Assembly: GCA_903911145.1 (NCBI GenBank)
Contig: CAIWCD010000052.1
Span: forward strand, 62,001-126,000
Direction of reading: 5' to 3'
DNA length: 64,000 bases
From: an uncultured delta proteobacterium
Lineage (GTDB): Bacteria > Myxococcota > Myxococcia > Myxococcales > 40CM-4-68-19
In this document: piece by piece, positions 31,706 to 64,000 of the stretch
How positions within the stretch are numbered: the stretch's first letter is position 1
Layout: the number at the start of each line of letters is the position of its first letter
The notes under the pieces: model-generated
Database searches by the model: none
What the model was told of the DNA's origin: nothing
The model's input: the letters and a program-made list of their open reading frames with translations, nothing else
Position numbers and translations under genes: made by a program

Positions 31706-32980
31706 ATGCAGCCTCACGACGTCCTCTCGCGCCGAGCGAAGCGAACATCTCTCGTGTTGGCCAACGTCCTCTGTGCGCTCTGCACGGTGGTGGCGGCCCC
31801 GACCGCGCGCGCCGTCGACACGAGCGCCAGCGCGAATCCGGCGAACGATCTGCCGCTCACCGATCTGCCCGACCTGCCGGCAGTGAAGAAGAAGACGCCG
31901 AAGCCGAAGGTGAAGAAGAAGGAGGAGAACGCACAGGTCGACGACGCAACCGGAGGACTGGTCGCCGCACCTCCGACGCAGAGTTCGCTGCCGCCTCCCA
32001 CGCGACTTCCCGACGTTCCGGGGCTTACGCTGTCAACGCACTTCGGCGTCACGCTCGTGCGCAGCCAGCTGCTCGACGAAGCGACGACTGCGGACATCGA
32101 GTCGGGCATGCGAGGCATCGCGTTCCAGGCCCCGATGTCGCAATACCCGATGGTGCTGCGGGCGACGCCGGAAGCGGCCTGCGCGGCGGACGATGATCCC
32201 TGCTTCATCGCCAAGGGAGCCAAGGAAGGAGCCGACACGGTGATCGTCGCCGTCGCCGAGCGGAGCGCCGCGGGGATCACGATGCATCTGCGCGAGCTCT
32301 CGATCTTCGGTCGCCGTCGCGTTTCGGAGAAGCAGATCGAGTCGCCCGATGAGCGCATTTCGCTGAAGGCCGCAACCGAGGGTCTGCTCTGCAAGATGAT
32401 CGTGCCGGCCGGCTGCACCAACGAACTGCTCATCGATGTCGGTCGTGCCGATCTGCTCTACGACGGACGCGTGCTGCCGAAAGGGAACACGGTTCCGATG
32501 CGGCTGGCGCTTCCCGTGGGCCTCGCTCCGCTCTCTGCGCGAGAAGGCGGACGCACCGGTCCGACGCGGCTCGTGCCCGTGCTGCGCGAGAAGATGACCG
32601 GTGTGGCGCTGACCGTGCGCCCCGACGGGGATGGCCTTCCTGCACTCGCGACGCTCTCCGAACTGGATCACCCGCCTGCACCAAGCGCCGCGACCATCGC
32701 GCAGGCTGCACATCGGCGTGCGCTCGTCGGCAAGGTCGCCGGCTTCGGCGTCGCGGGCGCGGGCGTCGTCGTGCTCGCCGCGGGATTCATCGAAGGGCTC
32801 CACGCCCACTCCCTGTTGAGCCAATCGCAGAGCGCCTACGATTCCCATCCGGGAGCCTGGGCGAGCAGCGAACTCTCCACGCTCCACAACGGAAACTCTG
32901 CGGCCAGGACGGCAAATATTCTCTTCATCGCGGGCGGCATCGCAGCCGCTGCGGGCCTGACGTTCGCTTTGACTTTCTAA
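31706..32980 (+). CDS. Secreted membrane-anchored protein, first gene of a duplicated two-gene cassette
   Basis: The protein has about 424 residues, with an N-terminal signal (SLVLANVLCALCTVVAAPTARA), then a Pro/Lys-rich spacer (KKKTPKPKVKKK). A domain with EAACAADDDPCFIAKGAKEGADTVIVAV follows, whose Cys pair and following Gly/Ala pattern resemble the CsgG/LpoB-like protein at 21051. The C-terminus has two hydrophobic segments (about 342-365 and 402-424), and the last residues ANILFIAGGIAAAAGLTF end at the stop. It is probably anchored in the inner membrane with the domain in the periplasm. The stop TAA overlaps the ATG of the large lipoprotein as TAATG. ATG at 31706 follows CTGGAG; an upstream in-frame start at 31676 adds 10 residues. 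Function unknown. Confidence 0.7.
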   Translation: MQPHDVLSRRAKRTSLVLANVLCALCTVVAAPTARAVDTSASANPANDLPLTDLPDLPAVKKKTPKPKVKKKEENAQVDDATGGLVAAPPTQSSLPPPTRLPDVPGLTLSTHFGVTLVRSQLLDEATTADIESGMRGIAFQAPMSQYPMVLRATPEAACAADDDPCFIAKGAKEGADTVIVAVAERSAAGITMHLRELSIFGRRRVSEKQIESPDERISLKAATEGLLCKMIVPAGCTNELLIDVGRADLLYDGRVLPKGNTVPMRLALPVGLAPLSAREGGRTGPTRLVPVLREKMTGVALTVRPDGDGLPALATLSELDHPPAPSAATIAQAAHRRALVGKVAGFGVAGAGVVVLAAGFIEGLHAHSLLSQSQSAYDSHPGAWASSELSTLHNGNSAARTANILFIAGGIAAAAGLTFALTF

Positions 32981-35900
32981 TGCGCACCCTCGACGAAACG
33001 ACACCCATGCGCACGCCTTCGCTTCGCTTCTGCCTCGCTCTCTGCGCCCTGCTCTTCGGCGCTGCGCTCGCCGGATGCTCGCCGCTCAGCCTCGGCACCT
33101 GCTCGTCCAATGCAGACTGCAAGAGCGGCTCGACCTGCGACTTTGGCCAATCGCCCGCGGTCTGCGTGATCAATGCTGGCGCGTGTTTCCCGGCCTGTCC
33201 CGATGGCCGCACCTGCCAGGATGGCGTCTGCGTCGGCGTCATCTGCGCGCCCGCGTGCACGCCCGGAACGCAGACCTGCAATCCCGTCGACGGCGGCTGC
33301 ATCACGGTGACGGAGCCGGTCATTACCGTCACGAGCCCGGCGGCCGGCTCGTTCGCGGGCGCGCAGCTTCAGGCAACAGCCGACGCCGTCGCACCAGGCG
33401 GAGTCTCGGCGTTGAAATTCGAGGTGCACCAGAACAGCACGGTTGTCGCGCAAGGAACTGGCGCGGCCCACCCGACCGGGAGCGATCCGTCCAACTGGTC
33501 GGGCATCGCCGACTTGAGCGCGCTCGACGGCGGAAGCGATGGACCCGCGTTTCTCTACGCCGTCGCCACGCTCGATGGCGGCGTCCATGCGCTGAGCCCG
33601 CCTGTCGCAATCACCATTGATCGCACCGGGCCCGAACTCCTTGCGCTCAGCGATGGCCGCACGTCGTTCTACAGCGGCGGCGCGACCGCACAGGTCCAGA
33701 TCCAGGTCAAGGACACGGGCGCCGGGATCGCCCCGGGAGCGCAGGCGACGCTCGCGTTCATCGGCGTCACGCATGCGCCCACGACTGCAACGGTGAGCGA
33801 CGCTGGCATCGCGTCCTTCGCCATCGCACTCGACGACGTGCTTGGCCCTCCATCCGCGAACACGACAGTCGCCTTCTCCGTCTCCTCGACGGACGCGGTG
33901 GGAAACTCGTCGACGCTGGTGGGGAACGCCAAAGAGGTGCTCCAGATCGATCGCCTCCCGCCGAGCGGAATGGTCGACGCAAACCCCGGCTGGCACTCGC
34001 AAGCAGAGCAGGTCGTCGTCACCGGAACCATCAGCGACCCTGGAGGCAGCATCACCGGTGGACAGAGCGCGGTCGTGCTCTCGCACGCTGGCACCACCCT
34101 CGCGACCGCCACCATCGCGGTCGGTGCTGGCCTCATCACCAACGGCACCTGGAGCGCCACGATCGATCTATCGGCGCAGACATTCCCGTTCGGCTTCGAA
34201 GGCGCATGGACGCTCACGGCAACGCTCACCGACGCAGCAGGGAACAGCGCCACCGCGGCGGGAGCGCTCCTCGTCGACGCGAGCGCGCCGCAGATCTCGA
34301 ATGTGCAGCTGCTTACGGCGAGCCGACATGACGGCGGCATCTACGACACCGACGCGGGCCCGCTCGCGTTCTCCGCGCAGATCAGCGACGCCACTGGAGT
34401 CGCGCGCGCGCGATTTTCGTACCAGGGCCAATCGCCGATCGCGGGCACGTCGAGCGACGGGGGCTTCTGGCTCTTCACCGTGCCTGCGCCGATCGGGAAC
34501 TACGACAACCAGGCGCTCGCGTTCACGCTCAGCGCTGATGATCTCTTCGCAGATGGCGGCGCGCCGGGAAGCGCCGGGGCCTTGCACCGTGCGGCCGCGA
34601 ACGGCAGCACTCTCTTCGACAACACTCCACCGCAGCTCACGATCAGCAGTGCGAGCGATGCGGGCTGGTATGTGCGCAACCTGCCTGCCGGTGGGGCTGC
34701 GATGCTCGAGATCGACGTGGCGATCAGCGACGGCAGCGGAGTCGCGGATGGCGGCGCTGCACCGAAGATGGTTATCAATGGCAACAATTCCAGTCCGGTC
34801 GCGCCCACCGCGAACAACGGCAGCGCGTACGTGTTCTTCCTCGACGCGACGCTCGCGCAGTCCGGCCAGGCGAGCGCCCTGAACTTCGTGGTGACCGCGC
34901 AGGATCTTCTCGGCAACAGCCGCAGCGCAGCGGGTTCGCGCAACATCGACGACGTGCCGCCGAGCATCACCGGGCTGCAGATCTACCGCTCGAGCGATGC
35001 GCCACCGGGAGGAGGAGTCGTCGGCTATCCAACGCAGCAGCAAGGAACAGGGCACGACGGAACCGCGTTCATCTTCAACGATCCGCTCACCGTCGGCGGC
35101 ACCGTGAACGAGCAAGGCGCCGGCACGCTCACGCTCAACGTGCAGGTCAATGGTGCGCAGACCGACGGAGGCACGACGACGGGCCAGGCGATCGCGTTGG
35201 CCTCGAGCGACGCAGGGACGTTCGACTTCGCGCAAGCAGTGCAGCTCAACGACCCGCGAAGTGGAGCGTTCAACATGCGGCTCGCGGACATCGGCCAGCC
35301 CGGCTTCCCGACGGGGACGATGTCGATTGCTCTGCGCGTCGAGGATGCTGCGATGCTCCCCGACGGCGGCCCTGCGCACCACGGCAGCAGCACCAACACA
35401 AGCGTGAACGTCACCCGCTTTCTCTGGCAGTCGGGGCTGACCGGCCTGGTGAACACGCACAACACCTATTCGCCGGGGATCGCTGGCTTCGCGCTTCACC
35501 CGAGCGGCGCGCTGATCGTGACAGGCGCGGCCAGCAACAATTCGGTGAATGCGAATCTCGTCTGGGCGCTCGACACGAACGACAACGGGAATCAACTCTG
35601 GAGCTGGGGTGGATACGACAACGGGAGCAACAACACCGTGGGAAACTCGAGCGACGCGCCTGCGATCGGCGCGGGTGACGCGACCACCGCTCCCATCTAT
35701 GTGTCGTCGTTCGGTGGGTATCTGACCGCACTCAACGCGGATGGAGGCGTGCGCTGGCAACTCGACCAGTCCGGGACCGCGGCCTTCGTCACAACGCCGA
35801 CGGTCGTGGAGACGAGCTTCCAGAACGCACTCGGAATCGCCACGCCCATCGAAGAGCTGATCGTTCCCGCGGGCGCGCTCTACACCGTCTTCGCCGACCC

Positions 35901-36651
35901 CATCGATGGAGGCCTGACCACGCACACGATTCCGCTCGGTGGCAGCGCCTCGACCTCGCCGCCGCTTGCGTTCGGCGGCAGCGCGTTCCTCGGCAGCAGC
36001 GATGGAATCTTTGCCGCCTACTCCATCGTCGATGGGGGCCTCGTCGACGCCGGCGCAATCGCGACCGACGCGGGTTCGTTCTGGGAGCCAATCACGGACG
36101 GCAGCGATGTCATCGTCGCGTTCGCCAAGCCGAGCAACACCGGCACCGTCGCGACACCGATCTATTCGCTCAACGCCGCGCTCACGACCACCAATCTCCT
36201 CGGCTCATTCCAGGGCATCACTGCGCCGCCTGCACTCGACGAGACGGGTGGCCTCTTCGTCCCGACCGGCGAGCACGCGCTGCGCACGCTCAACATCGAG
36301 ACGCAGGGCCCCACGCCGCTCGTGAGCACGCTTGCGGGAACGGGGCTCGCGCCGCTCGTCGGCTCGGAAGGGAATATCTATCTGCCGATGACCCAGTATT
36401 CGGTGCTGGCCTTCCGCGCCGGACTGCCGAGCTGGAGCTACGTCGGCACCCGCTCGATCTCAACGCGGCTGATGATCGACTGCCAGGGAATCCTCTACGT
36501 CGGCGCCGGCAACAACGTATTCGCCTTCGTCACCGACGATCACGGACTCGCGAACTCGGCCTGGCCGAACCACCGGAGAGACAGCCGCTCGAGCGGAAAC
36601 GCCGATGCGCCTCACTACGGAATGGCTACACCGAACGGCTGTAGCCAGTAG
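32980..36651 (+). CDS. Large lipoprotein: Cys-rich segment, Ig-like domains and PQQ-like beta-propeller
   Basis: The 1223-residue lipoprotein has lipobox ALAGC at residue 33. A Cys-rich segment of disulfide-bonded type follows (CSSNADCKSGSTCDFG...CPDGRTCQDGVC, to about residue 107). A long run of Ig-like beta domains with recurring IDRTGPELL/NIDDVPPS-type boundaries comes next (about 110-800). The C-terminal PQQ-like beta-propeller (about 810-1223) ends WPNHRRDSRSSGNAD. ATG at 32980 overlaps the stop of the preceding gene by one base (TAATG), suggesting reinitiation; ATG at 33007 would also keep the signal. The gene at 61846-63888 has the same four-part architecture. Surface binding or structure is plausible; function unknown. 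Confidence 0.8.
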   Translation: MRTLDETTPMRTPSLRFCLALCALLFGAALAGCSPLSLGTCSSNADCKSGSTCDFGQSPAVCVINAGACFPACPDGRTCQDGVCVGVICAPACTPGTQTCNPVDGGCITVTEPVITVTSPAAGSFAGAQLQATADAVAPGGVSALKFEVHQNSTVVAQGTGAAHPTGSDPSNWSGIADLSALDGGSDGPAFLYAVATLDGGVHALSPPVAITIDRTGPELLALSDGRTSFYSGGATAQVQIQVKDTGAGIAPGAQATLAFIGVTHAPTTATVSDAGIASFAIALDDVLGPPSANTTVAFSVSSTDAVGNSSTLVGNAKEVLQIDRLPPSGMVDANPGWHSQAEQVVVTGTISDPGGSITGGQSAVVLSHAGTTLATATIAVGAGLITNGTWSATIDLSAQTFPFGFEGAWTLTATLTDAAGNSATAAGALLVDASAPQISNVQLLTASRHDGGIYDTDAGPLAFSAQISDATGVARARFSYQGQSPIAGTSSDGGFWLFTVPAPIGNYDNQALAFTLSADDLFADGGAPGSAGALHRAAANGSTLFDNTPPQLTISSASDAGWYVRNLPAGGAAMLEIDVAISDGSGVADGGAAPKMVINGNNSSPVAPTANNGSAYVFFLDATLAQSGQASALNFVVTAQDLLGNSRSAAGSRNIDDVPPSITGLQIYRSSDAPPGGGVVGYPTQQQGTGHDGTAFIFNDPLTVGGTVNEQGAGTLTLNVQVNGAQTDGGTTTGQAIALASSDAGTFDFAQAVQLNDPRSGAFNMRLADIGQPGFPTGTMSIALRVEDAAMLPDGGPAHHGSSTNTSVNVTRFLWQSGLTGLVNTHNTYSPGIAGFALHPSGALIVTGAASNNSVNANLVWALDTNDNGNQLWSWGGYDNGSNNTVGNSSDAPAIGAGDATTAPIYVSSFGGYLTALNADGGVRWQLDQSGTAAFVTTPTVVETSFQNALGIATPIEELIVPAGALYTVFADPIDGGLTTHTIPLGGSASTSPPLAFGGSAFLGSSDGIFAAYSIVDGGLVDAGAIATDAGSFWEPITDGSDVIVAFAKPSNTGTVATPIYSLNAALTTTNLLGSFQGITAPPALDETGGLFVPTGEHALRTLNIETQGPTPLVSTLAGTGLAPLVGSEGNIYLPMTQYSVLAFRAGLPSWSYVGTRSISTRLMIDCQGILYVGAGNNVFAFVTDDHGLANSAWPNHRRDSRSSGNADAPHYGMATPNGCSQ

Positions 36652-61845: not shown

Positions 61846-63888
61846 CTACTCGCAGGCTCCCATCGAAGCATTGCCGGTGCCGCGTGCGTCGTGGCCAAAG
61901 CGCGACCAGCCTGGAGCAAGGCCACGGCTGTCGGTGGCGATCGAGCTGACGAATCCCGCGGCGTCGCCAAGATAGAGCGTGCCATCGCAGCCAATGGTCG
62001 GGCTTGAGGCGGTCGCCGCGCCGGGGAGAGGCAGCGACCAGAGCAGCCCGCCGGCGGGAGCGAACGCATAGAGCGTGCGTTCGGCCGCCAGGTAGACCGT
62101 GCCATCCGCGCCGACCGCAGGAGTCGACTCGACGTTGGCCGCACCCGCGATGCTGATGGGCGCGTAGGCCGGAGGAGCCGCAGCAGCGCTGCTGTTCGCG
62201 GTGGGAGCGAGCGAGCCGACGTCGTCGAGCGCGAGAAGTGTGCCGAAGGCGAAGACAGGAGAGGAGAGCACCTTGTCGGCGAGGGGCGCGGGAGTCGCGC
62301 GCGGCGCACCATTGGCGGCGAGCATCAGCAGTCGGCCGCTCTCGTCAGCGAAGGCGATGCCGTCCGCACCCAGCGCGGGCGAGGCGCTGATCTGTGCGCC
62401 CGTCGCGACGCTCCATTTCTCGATAAAGGCGAAGCGGCCCTGCGCGTCGCTCGAAACTCCGAGCGCGTGGGCCTTGGAGTCATCGCCACCGACGTAGATC
62501 GTCCCGTCGAGATCGATGGCGGGGCTCGTTCGGCCACCCGAGACAGGAGCGAAGAGGGTGCAGGAGCGCATGCCGTTCGCGCGAACGAATCCGGTCGTTC
62601 CCTCGAGGAGAAAGAGGCCACCCGCGACCGCGTCGCTGCCGAGCATGAAGGTGCCGGTGTTGACGAGCGCGATCGCTTCCATCGAGACGCCGCTCGAGCC
62701 GATTCCAGCGATCGAAGCGATCGCCGGAGAGGAGCGGAAGCTCAGGCCGGTCGGAAGATCGGCGCAACTCCAGAGAAGCGCGCCGGTGTCGGGATCGATC
62801 GCGCGCACCTCGCCTCCTTCGCTCGCGGCATACAGCGCATGGGCGCCTCGTGCGGGTGAGGCGCTCACAGGGCCGGCGAGCGTGCGGGACCAGAGCGGTG
62901 CTGCGGTCGCTCGATCGAGCGAGAGGATGTTGCCTGCGTCGGTGCCGATGAAGAGGTGGTGCGCGTCGATCACGGGAGAGCTGCGGATGGGCAGCCCCCC
63001 GCCGACTGAGCGGCTCCAGAGCGCGCGCGTCACCGGGACCGCGCCATTCATCGTCGCTTCGTTGCCGAGAAGATCGCGCGCCCGCACGCCGAGCGCGAGC
63101 GGACCTGTGCCGGCGAGGAAGTCCGGGGCAGCCAGAGGCACACGGAAGCTCCACTCCTGCGCGGAGAGACGCGTGCCGGAGATCGCGAGCATTCCCGGCG
63201 CGACGACGACCGGGGTCGCCGCGTCGATCCCGACTCCGTCATCGATGATGCGCGCGCGGATCTCGATGGTCTCCGTCCGGAGGAAGTTCGCTCCGCGCGG
63301 CGTTGGCAGGGAGAGCTCGATGTGCGGGCCGGTCCGATCAATCCGGATGCGGCGCGCGCCGCCGCTGTAGCTCTGGCCCGCAGCGAGGATGACCGGTTCG
63401 AGTTTCCAGTCGCGCTCCTCAAGAGCGCCAGCGTCAAAGAGACCGCGGTAGAGACCATCGGCCGCGAGAACCACCGGCACGAGCACCGTCGACACGCCGA
63501 CGCCATTGAGCGGCGTCAATCGCACCGCTGCCGTCACGGCAGGAGCTGGCGTCGAGATCGACAGCGCGAGTGAGACAGCGCCAGTCGCTACGCCCTGGCC
63601 GTCAGAGGGAGAGACCCACGAGACAGACGGAGGCGCATCAAGCGCGCAGGTGCCGTCGTCGCAGTGCAGCCCGCTCGCACAAGGATCCGAACAGGTGCGC
63701 GGCGCGCGCGTCTCGCAAAGCCCGCCCGTGCAGGCGAGGCCATAGCCGCAGTCGTTGTCGGTGCTGCACTGCCCGCCCGGATGAGGGATGCAGGCCGCGA
63801 ACAGCGCGGCACAGACAGAGACCAGAAGCAGGCGCGCCATACCCAACATAGATATCTGCTTATCGTTATATGCAACTTTGATTATCAT
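61846..63888 (-). CDS. Lipoprotein: Cys-rich segment, Ig-like domain and PQQ-like beta-propeller (second cassette copy)
   Basis: The 680-residue lipoprotein has lipobox ALFAAC at residue 33. A Cys-rich segment (CSTDNDCGYGLACTGGLC...CSDPCASGLHCDDGTC) follows, then one or two Ig-like domains (about 87-285). The PQQ-like beta-propeller (about 290-680) has repeated LWSRxLAGPVxASPAxG and GTxYxGxDxxxxxAL phrases and ends GWSRFGHDARGTGNAS. The order of parts is that of the larger lipoprotein at 32980. ATG at 63888 overlaps the stop of the preceding gene (TAATG) and follows AAGGGAAG. The first 16 codons are oddly A+T-rich and contain a -10-like TATAAC, so initiation at ATG 63849 or 63840 from an internal promoter is possible. 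Confidence 0.8.
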   Translation of the reverse strand: MIIKVAYNDKQISMLGMARLLLVSVCAALFAACIPHPGGQCSTDNDCGYGLACTGGLCETRAPRTCSDPCASGLHCDDGTCALDAPPSVSWVSPSDGQGVATGAVSLALSISTPAPAVTAAVRLTPLNGVGVSTVLVPVVLAADGLYRGLFDAGALEERDWKLEPVILAAGQSYSGGARRIRIDRTGPHIELSLPTPRGANFLRTETIEIRARIIDDGVGIDAATPVVVAPGMLAISGTRLSAQEWSFRVPLAAPDFLAGTGPLALGVRARDLLGNEATMNGAVPVTRALWSRSVGGGLPIRSSPVIDAHHLFIGTDAGNILSLDRATAAPLWSRTLAGPVSASPARGAHALYAASEGGEVRAIDPDTGALLWSCADLPTGLSFRSSPAIASIAGIGSSGVSMEAIALVNTGTFMLGSDAVAGGLFLLEGTTGFVRANGMRSCTLFAPVSGGRTSPAIDLDGTIYVGGDDSKAHALGVSSDAQGRFAFIEKWSVATGAQISASPALGADGIAFADESGRLLMLAANGAPRATPAPLADKVLSSPVFAFGTLLALDDVGSLAPTANSSAAAAPPAYAPISIAGAANVESTPAVGADGTVYLAAERTLYAFAPAGGLLWSLPLPGAATASSPTIGCDGTLYLGDAAGFVSSIATDSRGLAPGWSRFGHDARGTGNASMGACE

Positions 63889-64000
63889 TAGAACTTCCCT
63901 TGAATTGATGCGCCGTCCGGCGAGAGAAGAAACAGCGTGCCGCCGACAGCGAGCGCGCCCAGGCCGGTCGCGCCGACAATGAGGGCGGCGACGCCAGCGG
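63888..64000 (-). CDS. C-terminal end of a membrane-anchored protein, first gene of the second cassette
   Basis: Only the last 37 residues are in the window. They form a hydrophobic helix (AGVAALIVGATGLGALAV, GGTLFLLSPDG) followed by ASIQGKF and a TAA stop. This matches in character the C-terminal helix of the protein at 31706-32980 (ANILFIAGGIAAAAGLTF). The stop overlaps the ATG of the lipoprotein gene by one base, as in that pair. The rest of the gene lies beyond the right edge. Confidence 0.6.
   Translation of the reverse strand, partial: AGVAALIVGATGLGALAVGGTLFLLSPDGASIQGKF

What the first reader, a model, noticed from the sequence alone, without database searches (positions are those of the whole stretch)
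31706..36651. Two-gene envelope cassette present twice in the window, each time joined by TAATG
At 31706-36651 a secreted protein with a C-terminal transmembrane helix is followed by a lipoprotein with the order lipobox, Cys-rich segment, Ig-like domains, PQQ-like propeller. The stop and start share one base. At the right edge (61846-64000) the same arrangement recurs on the other strand: a hydrophobic C-terminal helix, TAATG, and a lipoprotein of the same four-part order ending in the same kind of W...R/H-D-x-R-x-x-GN tail. The repeated coupling suggests equimolar production of two partners, perhaps an inner-membrane protein handing over or displaying a surface propeller lipoprotein. I know of no named system with this layout.
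Basis: partly seen in the sequence, partly recalled or inferred. Interest (0 to 1): 0.7.

Follow-up and report, generated by a model that had tools for sequence, protein, structure and literature searches.

The report
Myxobacterial membrane-partner and Cys-rich lipoprotein cassette
Two neighbouring genes, one for an exported protein ending in a membrane hairpin and one for a cysteine-rich lipoprotein, occur side by side again and again in soil bacteria of the phylum Myxococcota, which suggests an undescribed two-part device for building or displaying proteins on the cell envelope.

Summary
Both TAATG junctions exist. The gene beyond 64000 was fetched and is a relative of the 31706 protein (E 6e-6). 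The two lipoproteins are also related (E 1e-8). A third full pair and a fourth partial one lie elsewhere in the genome. In relatives the two genes stay adjacent, and their divergence is parallel (r 0.92, 0 of 5000 permutations).

In 53 of 95 Myxococcota loci with a gene-1 relative, a Cys-rich lipoprotein starts within 60 bp downstream, against 4 of 405 background genes. Constant: gene 1's two-helix membrane hairpin and gene 2's lipobox plus small Cys module. Variable: gene 1's soluble part (TolB_N/LpoB/CsgG-like, TPR, PEGA) and gene 2's ectodomain (BamB-like propeller, FG-GAP, beta-helix, Ig/PKD, metal-binding repeats).

TAATG itself is not conserved; same-genus orthologues have offsets +13 and +1. 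So "equimolar coupling by TAATG" is not supported. Nearly half of gene-1 relatives lack such a neighbour, and some propeller lipoproteins are orphans. Best reading: a dedicated envelope partner that holds or displays its cognate lipoprotein. Physical complex and membrane location are inferred, not shown. I found no published description.

The parts
31706..32980 (+). Gene 1 of pair A: exported protein of 424 aa, member of family A1 (4 invariant Cys)
   Evidence: ORF; alignment A1 of 19 relatives; AF2 model mean pLDDT 79.6
31706..31813 (+). Probable Sec signal peptide (...APTARA/VD), followed by a Lys/Pro-rich disordered linker to about residue 105
   Evidence: sequence; pLDDT < 50 over most of residues 31-87
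32027..32410 (+). Soluble alpha/beta domain, TolB N-terminal/LpoB/PelC/CsgG-like
   Evidence: pLDDT mostly > 90; Foldseek TolB E 7e-5, PelC 1e-3, LpoB 4e-3; weak FlgO/TolB_N Pfam matches in relatives
32417..32653 (+). Beta-rich PEGA-like domain
   Evidence: strands 238-316 in the model; PEGA above cut-off in relatives L092, L089, L144, L147, L151
32687..32974 (+). C-terminal two-helix membrane hairpin (helices 328-380 and 387-423), protein ends in Phe
   Evidence: model; two hydrophobic peaks in 96 of 97 relatives
32978..32982 (+). TAATG junction of pair A
   Evidence: sequence
32980..36651 (+). Gene 2 of pair A: lipoprotein of 1223 aa (or 1214 aa from the ATG at 33007)
   Evidence: ORF; alternative start
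33076..33306 (+). Lipobox Cys (33076-33078) and Cys-rich module
   Evidence: sequence; invariant Cys in A2
35407..36609 (+). Diverged PQQ/BamB-type propeller region with the W-P-x-x-x-x-D-x-R-x-x-G-N type tail; approximate limits
   Evidence: alignment to the pair B propeller; PQQ_2 matches in relatives L075 and L086
61846..63888 (-). Gene 2 of pair B: lipoprotein of 680 aa
   Evidence: ORF; AF2 mean pLDDT 82.8
63790..63792 (-). Lipobox Cys of the pair B lipoprotein
   Evidence: sequence, invariant C33 of A2
61924..62991 (-). Propeller of the pair B lipoprotein, BamB/PQQ type
   Evidence: PQQ_2 E 1e-16; Foldseek 8-bladed designs E 2e-19, BamB E 4e-12
63886..63890 (-). TAATG junction of pair B
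   Evidence: sequence
63888..64000 (-). 3' end of gene 1 of pair B; the gene continues outside the window to L002:7013 (374 aa in all)

Best explanation
A two-gene envelope cassette of Myxococcota. Gene 1 encodes a Sec-exported protein with a soluble periplasmic interaction domain (TolB_N/LpoB-like, TPR or PEGA). It is fixed to a membrane by a C-terminal two-helix hairpin. Gene 2, probably translated next from the same message, encodes a lipoprotein with a lipid-anchored N-terminal Cys module and an exchangeable, probably ligand-binding or scaffolding, ectodomain. The most likely mechanism is that gene 1's product is the dedicated membrane partner of its own lipoprotein: it docks near the lipoprotein's constant Cys module and holds it in place or helps its assembly or display, while the ectodomain does the outward work (binding, adhesion, scaffolding). 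SHOWN: adjacency, co-inheritance, homology, constant and variable parts, folds by prediction. INFERRED: Sec export, lipidation, co-transcription, physical complex, site of docking, membrane identity, display.
For: The gene beyond the window edge is homologous. Three full pairs in the own genome (A, B, C23), plus a fourth cut by a contig end (C46, L133). Mirror-tree r 0.917 over 16 complete pairs, 0 of 5000 permutations as high. A gene-1 relative is followed within 60 bp by a Cys-rich lipoprotein in 53/95 loci vs 4/405 background genes (p 3e-40); outside the window's own family 31/61 vs 4/226. Hairpin present in 96/97 relatives. Soluble parts vary: TPR, TolB_N/PEGA. Ectodomains vary: propeller, FG-GAP, beta-helix, Ig/PKD, metal-binding repeats. 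Model and Foldseek results.
Against: No direct evidence of contact between the two proteins; linked genes share a tree in any case, so the mirror-tree shows inheritance as a unit, not binding. 42 of 95 gene-1 relatives have no such lipoprotein next to them. Propeller lipoproteins without gene 1 exist. The membrane of the hairpin is unknown, and the positive-inside signal is ambiguous. Loci are not phylogenetically independent.
Confidence: 0.5

Rival explanations
1. Co-transcribed neighbours without contact: myxobacteria have many Cys-rich lipoproteins and many PEGA/TPR hairpin proteins; the pair is a common operon layout inherited vertically and duplicated, with independent functions under shared regulation.
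For: 42/95 gene-1 relatives lack the neighbour and orphan lipoproteins exist; junctions vary.
Against: Association 53/95 against 4/405, held across families with unrelated soluble parts and ectodomains; parallel divergence.
Confidence: 0.25
2. BAM- or Tol-like assembly factor: a TolB_N- or TPR-containing partner plus a BamB-type propeller lipoprotein work together on outer-membrane protein assembly or on cross-envelope tethering (a 'split TolB' or BamB/BamD-like pair).
For: Foldseek: gene-1 domain nearest to TolB N-terminal domain, propeller nearest among natural proteins to BamB; TPR version of gene 1.
Against: Scores far below the BamB equivalog cut-offs (57.1 vs 285.2 and 36.1 vs 423 bits); several paralogues per genome; ectodomain is not a propeller in many relatives; the Cys-rich and Ig parts have no place in BamB or TolB.
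Confidence: 0.1
3. Sensor pair: the lipoprotein ectodomain senses a ligand and the hairpin protein passes the signal across the inner membrane, for example to a Ser/Thr kinase.
For: A Ser/Thr kinase is divergently encoded beside pair B and again beside its relative in L086; another kinase follows the C16 lipoprotein.
Against: No kinase relative found beside pair A relatives or in L088 and L089; the hairpin has no signalling domain.
Confidence: 0.1

Closest known systems
Slam/type 11 secretion (DUF560 outer-membrane protein next to its surface-lipoprotein cargo; PMC12282271)
   Same: Membrane protein encoded beside a cognate lipoprotein with variable effector domain; periplasmic N-terminal domain, TPR in some gene-1 proteins here (that Slam carries a TPR part is from memory)
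   Different: No DUF560 beta-barrel: gene 1 has only a two-helix hairpin; the lipoprotein has no C-terminal 8-strand barrel, its constant part is the N-terminal Cys module
BamB (PQQ-type propeller lipoprotein)
   Same: Lipoprotein with a propeller of the 8-bladed type; best natural structural match
   Different: Cys-rich and Ig domains added; far below the BamB equivalog cut-offs; several copies per genome; propeller exchangeable in relatives
TolB (N-terminal domain plus propeller) and the LpoB/PelC/CsgG/FlgO group
   Same: Fold of the gene-1 soluble domain; TolB joins such a domain to a propeller
   Different: Two separate proteins; PEGA-like domain and membrane hairpin added; four invariant Cys; propeller of PQQ type
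SlyB, a lipoprotein forming transmembrane rings in the outer membrane (PMC13067283)
   Same: Possible precedent for a non-barrel protein spanning the outer membrane
   Different: No sequence link tested; gene 1 is not a lipoprotein by its signal; a resemblance only
CglB and TraA of Myxococcus (surface lipoprotein adhesin; outer-membrane exchange protein)
   Same: Cell-surface proteins of the same phylum (PMC12282271 and PMC3325183; cysteine content from memory)
   Different: VWA (CglB) and, from memory, PA14-like (TraA) ectodomains and different partners; no homology tested

Membership tests
BamB | PQQ-type propeller | tested here: met
   PQQ_2 E 1e-16; Foldseek to BamB E 4e-12
BamB | Equivalog score above curated cut-off | tested here: not met
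   TIGR03300 57.1 vs 285.2 bits; PRK11138 36.1 vs 423 bits
BamB | Binds BamA POTRA-3 | not testable with these tools
   no complex prediction available
TolB | TolB_N domain and propeller in one chain | tested here: not met
   Domain in gene 1, propeller in gene 2; TolB_N only below cut-off in relatives
TolB_N/LpoB/CsgG/PelC fold group | Shared alpha/beta fold | tested here: met
   Foldseek E 7e-5 to TolB; PelC, LpoB, GNA1162 at probability 0.98-1.00; predicted model, not a solved structure
Slam/T11SS | DUF560 beta-barrel in the partner | tested here: not met
   No Pfam match of that kind; model ends in helices
Bacterial lipoprotein | N-terminal signal with lipobox Cys | tested here: met
   LAGC and FAAC; Cys invariant in 16 relatives. 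Lipidation itself not tested
PEGA-domain protein | PEGA above cut-off | tested here: inconclusive
   Not in the gene-1 proteins of pairs A and B; met in relatives L089, L092, L144, L145, L147, L151, L153

The most novel reading that the evidence does not exclude
A phylum-wide, undescribed route of lipoprotein display: gene 1 is an outer-membrane protein held by a two-helix hairpin, most members carrying an OMP-like aromatic C-terminus, and it places its cognate Cys-module lipoprotein on the cell surface, with exchangeable ectodomains across Myxococcota.
Probability: 0.12. Interest if true: 0.85.

Novelty: new variant of a known kind. Interest (0 to 1): 0.55.

Why it matters
Myxococcota have many uncharacterised Cys-rich lipoproteins whose partners, sorting and display are unknown. 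A conserved partner gene beside more than half of the sampled hairpin proteins gives a handle: it predicts cognate pairs, a constant docking part, and which ectodomains are delivered by the same means. It could be tested in Myxococcus laboratory strains.

Tried and rejected
TAATG as the conserved feature: rejected, junction offsets vary. GRF codons at the end of gene 1 as a hidden Shine-Dalgarno: rejected as the general reason, Arg is coded mostly by CGN (25 of 30). The own-genome propeller protein on C31 (L015) and the Cys-containing protein on C32 (L017) as further pairs: no gene-1 relative recognised among the listed ORFs (not searched specifically). Joining the contig ends C46 and C16 into one locus: no exact overlap. 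Named organisms for the window: the 31706 protein found none in genome contigs; a family alignment found only Deltaproteobacteria/Myxococcales MAGs. Profile A1 was too diverse for that scan. Paper searches on PEGA, Cys-rich lipoprotein, TolB/CsgG/LpoB, paralogous pairs and MopE gave no description.

Full report
CHECK OF THE OBSERVATION. Both pairs are in the sequence as described. In pair A, TAA (32978-32980) and ATG (32980-32982) share a base. In pair B, TAA (63890-63888) and ATG (63888-63886) do the same on the other strand. The window is C52:62001-126000 of a 5.3 Mb, 53-contig genome. The contig continues, so the gene cut at 64000 could be read in full: 374 aa, signal peptide, soluble domain, two hydrophobic helices, C-terminus SIQGKF. 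It matches the 31706 protein (26% over 127 aa, E 6e-6). The lipoproteins match each other in both halves.

START CODONS. Both lipoproteins have later in-frame ATGs that give a shorter, more typical lipoprotein signal (A: +26, position 33007; B: +47). Pair B has a plausible Shine-Dalgarno (AGGGAAG) before the TAATG start; pair A has none. So the A junction may be fortuitous.

OTHER PAIRS IN THE GENOME. C23 carries a third full pair: a TPR protein with the same kind of C-terminal hairpin, overlapping a propeller lipoprotein with a GTG start (L014). C46 ends inside a Cys-rich lipoprotein directly after a gene-1 relative (L133). C16 ends inside another propeller lipoprotein with a different tail (L016); no exact overlap joins these two contig ends.

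RELATIVES. The proteins P0001, P0003 and P0004 were searched in 60 related genomes, and the loci were fetched and read. In the window's family, gene-1 relatives of the A, B and TPR types are followed by a Cys-rich/Ig/PQQ lipoprotein, or by its start where the contig ends, with few exceptions. A further type (L090, L092-L095, L099, L101, L102) is not; in L090, L092, L094, L095 and L101 the next gene is a short non-Cys-rich lipoprotein, and in L093, L099 and L102 no lipoprotein was recognised. Alignment A1 of 19 gene-1 proteins has four invariant Cys (159, 166, 229, 237 of the window protein). Alignment A2 of 16 lipoproteins has an invariant lipobox Cys, four more N-terminal Cys, and the last Cys. 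Distances of gene 1 and gene 2 over 16 complete pairs correlate at r 0.917, and none of 5000 permutations reached it. This shows inheritance and duplication as units; it does not prove contact, since linked genes share history.

PHYLUM-WIDE PATTERN. Profile A1 matches 155 of 195 Myxococcota genomes, often only through PEGA and hairpin. Further loci were taken from that list without looking at their neighbours first. With one rule for both classes, 53 of 95 gene-1 relatives are followed within 60 bp by a Cys-rich lipoprotein, against 4 of 405 other genes of the same loci (Fisher p 3e-40). Outside the window's family it is 31 of 61 against 4 of 226 (p 2e-20) (an earlier rule gave 50/95 vs 6/372). 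The loci are related, so p overstates independence. Unpaired gene-1 relatives are common, for example in family f11, where a short RRxxPR-motif protein follows.

JUNCTIONS. Among 54 detected pairs the offset of gene 2's start from gene 1's stop is -4 in 15, -1 in 9, and mostly within 14 bp otherwise. Same-genus orthologues of the window pairs have +13 (L068) and +1 (L087). Tight spacing is general; TAATG is not.

STRUCTURE. The AF2 model of the 31706 protein (mean pLDDT 79.6) has a well-predicted alpha/beta domain (108-235), a beta-rich domain (238-316) and a hairpin of two long helices (328-380, 387-423). Foldseek puts the first domain with TolB, PelC, LpoB and GNA1162, and more weakly CsgG. 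The pair B lipoprotein model (pLDDT 82.8) matches 8-bladed designed propellers and BamB. BamB equivalog scores are far below the cut-offs. In distant pairs the ectodomain is a beta-helix, FG-GAP, PKD/Ig, Big_2 or metal-binding/disulfide repeats, and gene 1 carries TPR and/or PEGA.

TOPOLOGY. 96 of 97 gene-1 relatives show two hydrophobic stretches. Net charge averages +1.5 in the 15 residues before helix 1 and +0.3 in the loop; with a Sec signal peptide this does not fit the positive-inside rule well, but total K/R is higher in the longer loop. 75 of 95 relatives end in F or W, against 18 of 377 background ORFs, resembling the C-terminal signal of outer-membrane barrels (established knowledge). 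The location is left open.

ORPHANS AND LOSS. Propeller lipoproteins without gene 1 upstream: L225, L226, L227, L228, L232. In G006 the pair B locus, recognised by its acyl-CoA dehydrogenase (81% DNA identity), has a gene-1 remnant lacking most of its soluble domain, and no lipoprotein; a different ORF lies between. It sits at a contig end of a draft genome, so an assembly fault is possible.

NEIGHBOURS. Pair A lies between a MATE transporter and ferrochelatase, and the MATE gene is also near L069 and L077. Pair B lies between a Ser/Thr kinase and an acyl-CoA dehydrogenase, and the kinase recurs beside L086. No common functional neighbour emerges.

MECHANISM. A constant hairpin and a constant Cys module against a variable soluble domain and a variable ectodomain suggest that the constant parts work together near a membrane and the variable parts do the specific work. 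I put 0.5 on a dedicated membrane partner that holds or helps display its lipoprotein. This is inference from gene order and domain layout.

KNOWN SYSTEMS. Paper searches gave no description of this layout. The nearest in logic is Slam/T11SS, a membrane protein beside its lipoprotein cargo, but the DUF560 barrel is absent.

Noticed in passing
gene-1 relatives, loci L002-L192: 75 of 95 proteins end in Phe or Trp (background 18 of 377), many as G-x-F after a short strand-like tail, like the C-terminal signal of outer-membrane barrels although the protein ends in a helical hairpin.
   Followed up: partly
L137, L138, L150, L152 (family f11): The gene-1 relative is followed by a short protein with an RRxxPR motif, resembling PilZ proteins, in place of a lipoprotein; domain not tested.
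   Followed up: no
L090, L092, L094, L095, L101: A TolB_N-like/PEGA/hairpin protein is followed by a short non-Cys-rich lipoprotein (CR...YQQLYA-type sequence with QLDDAYGDP).
   Followed up: no
L002:7629-9386 and L086: A Ser/Thr kinase is divergently encoded beside pair B and beside its relative in L086.
   Followed up: partly
L223: Two propeller lipoproteins with near-identical tails lie in tandem.
   Followed up: no
L073: A TPR-type pair and a TolB_N-type pair lie back to back in one relative.
   Followed up: no
L091: Pair B locus with a shortened gene-1 remnant and no lipoprotein beside a conserved acyl-CoA dehydrogenase; contig end of a draft genome.
   Followed up: partly
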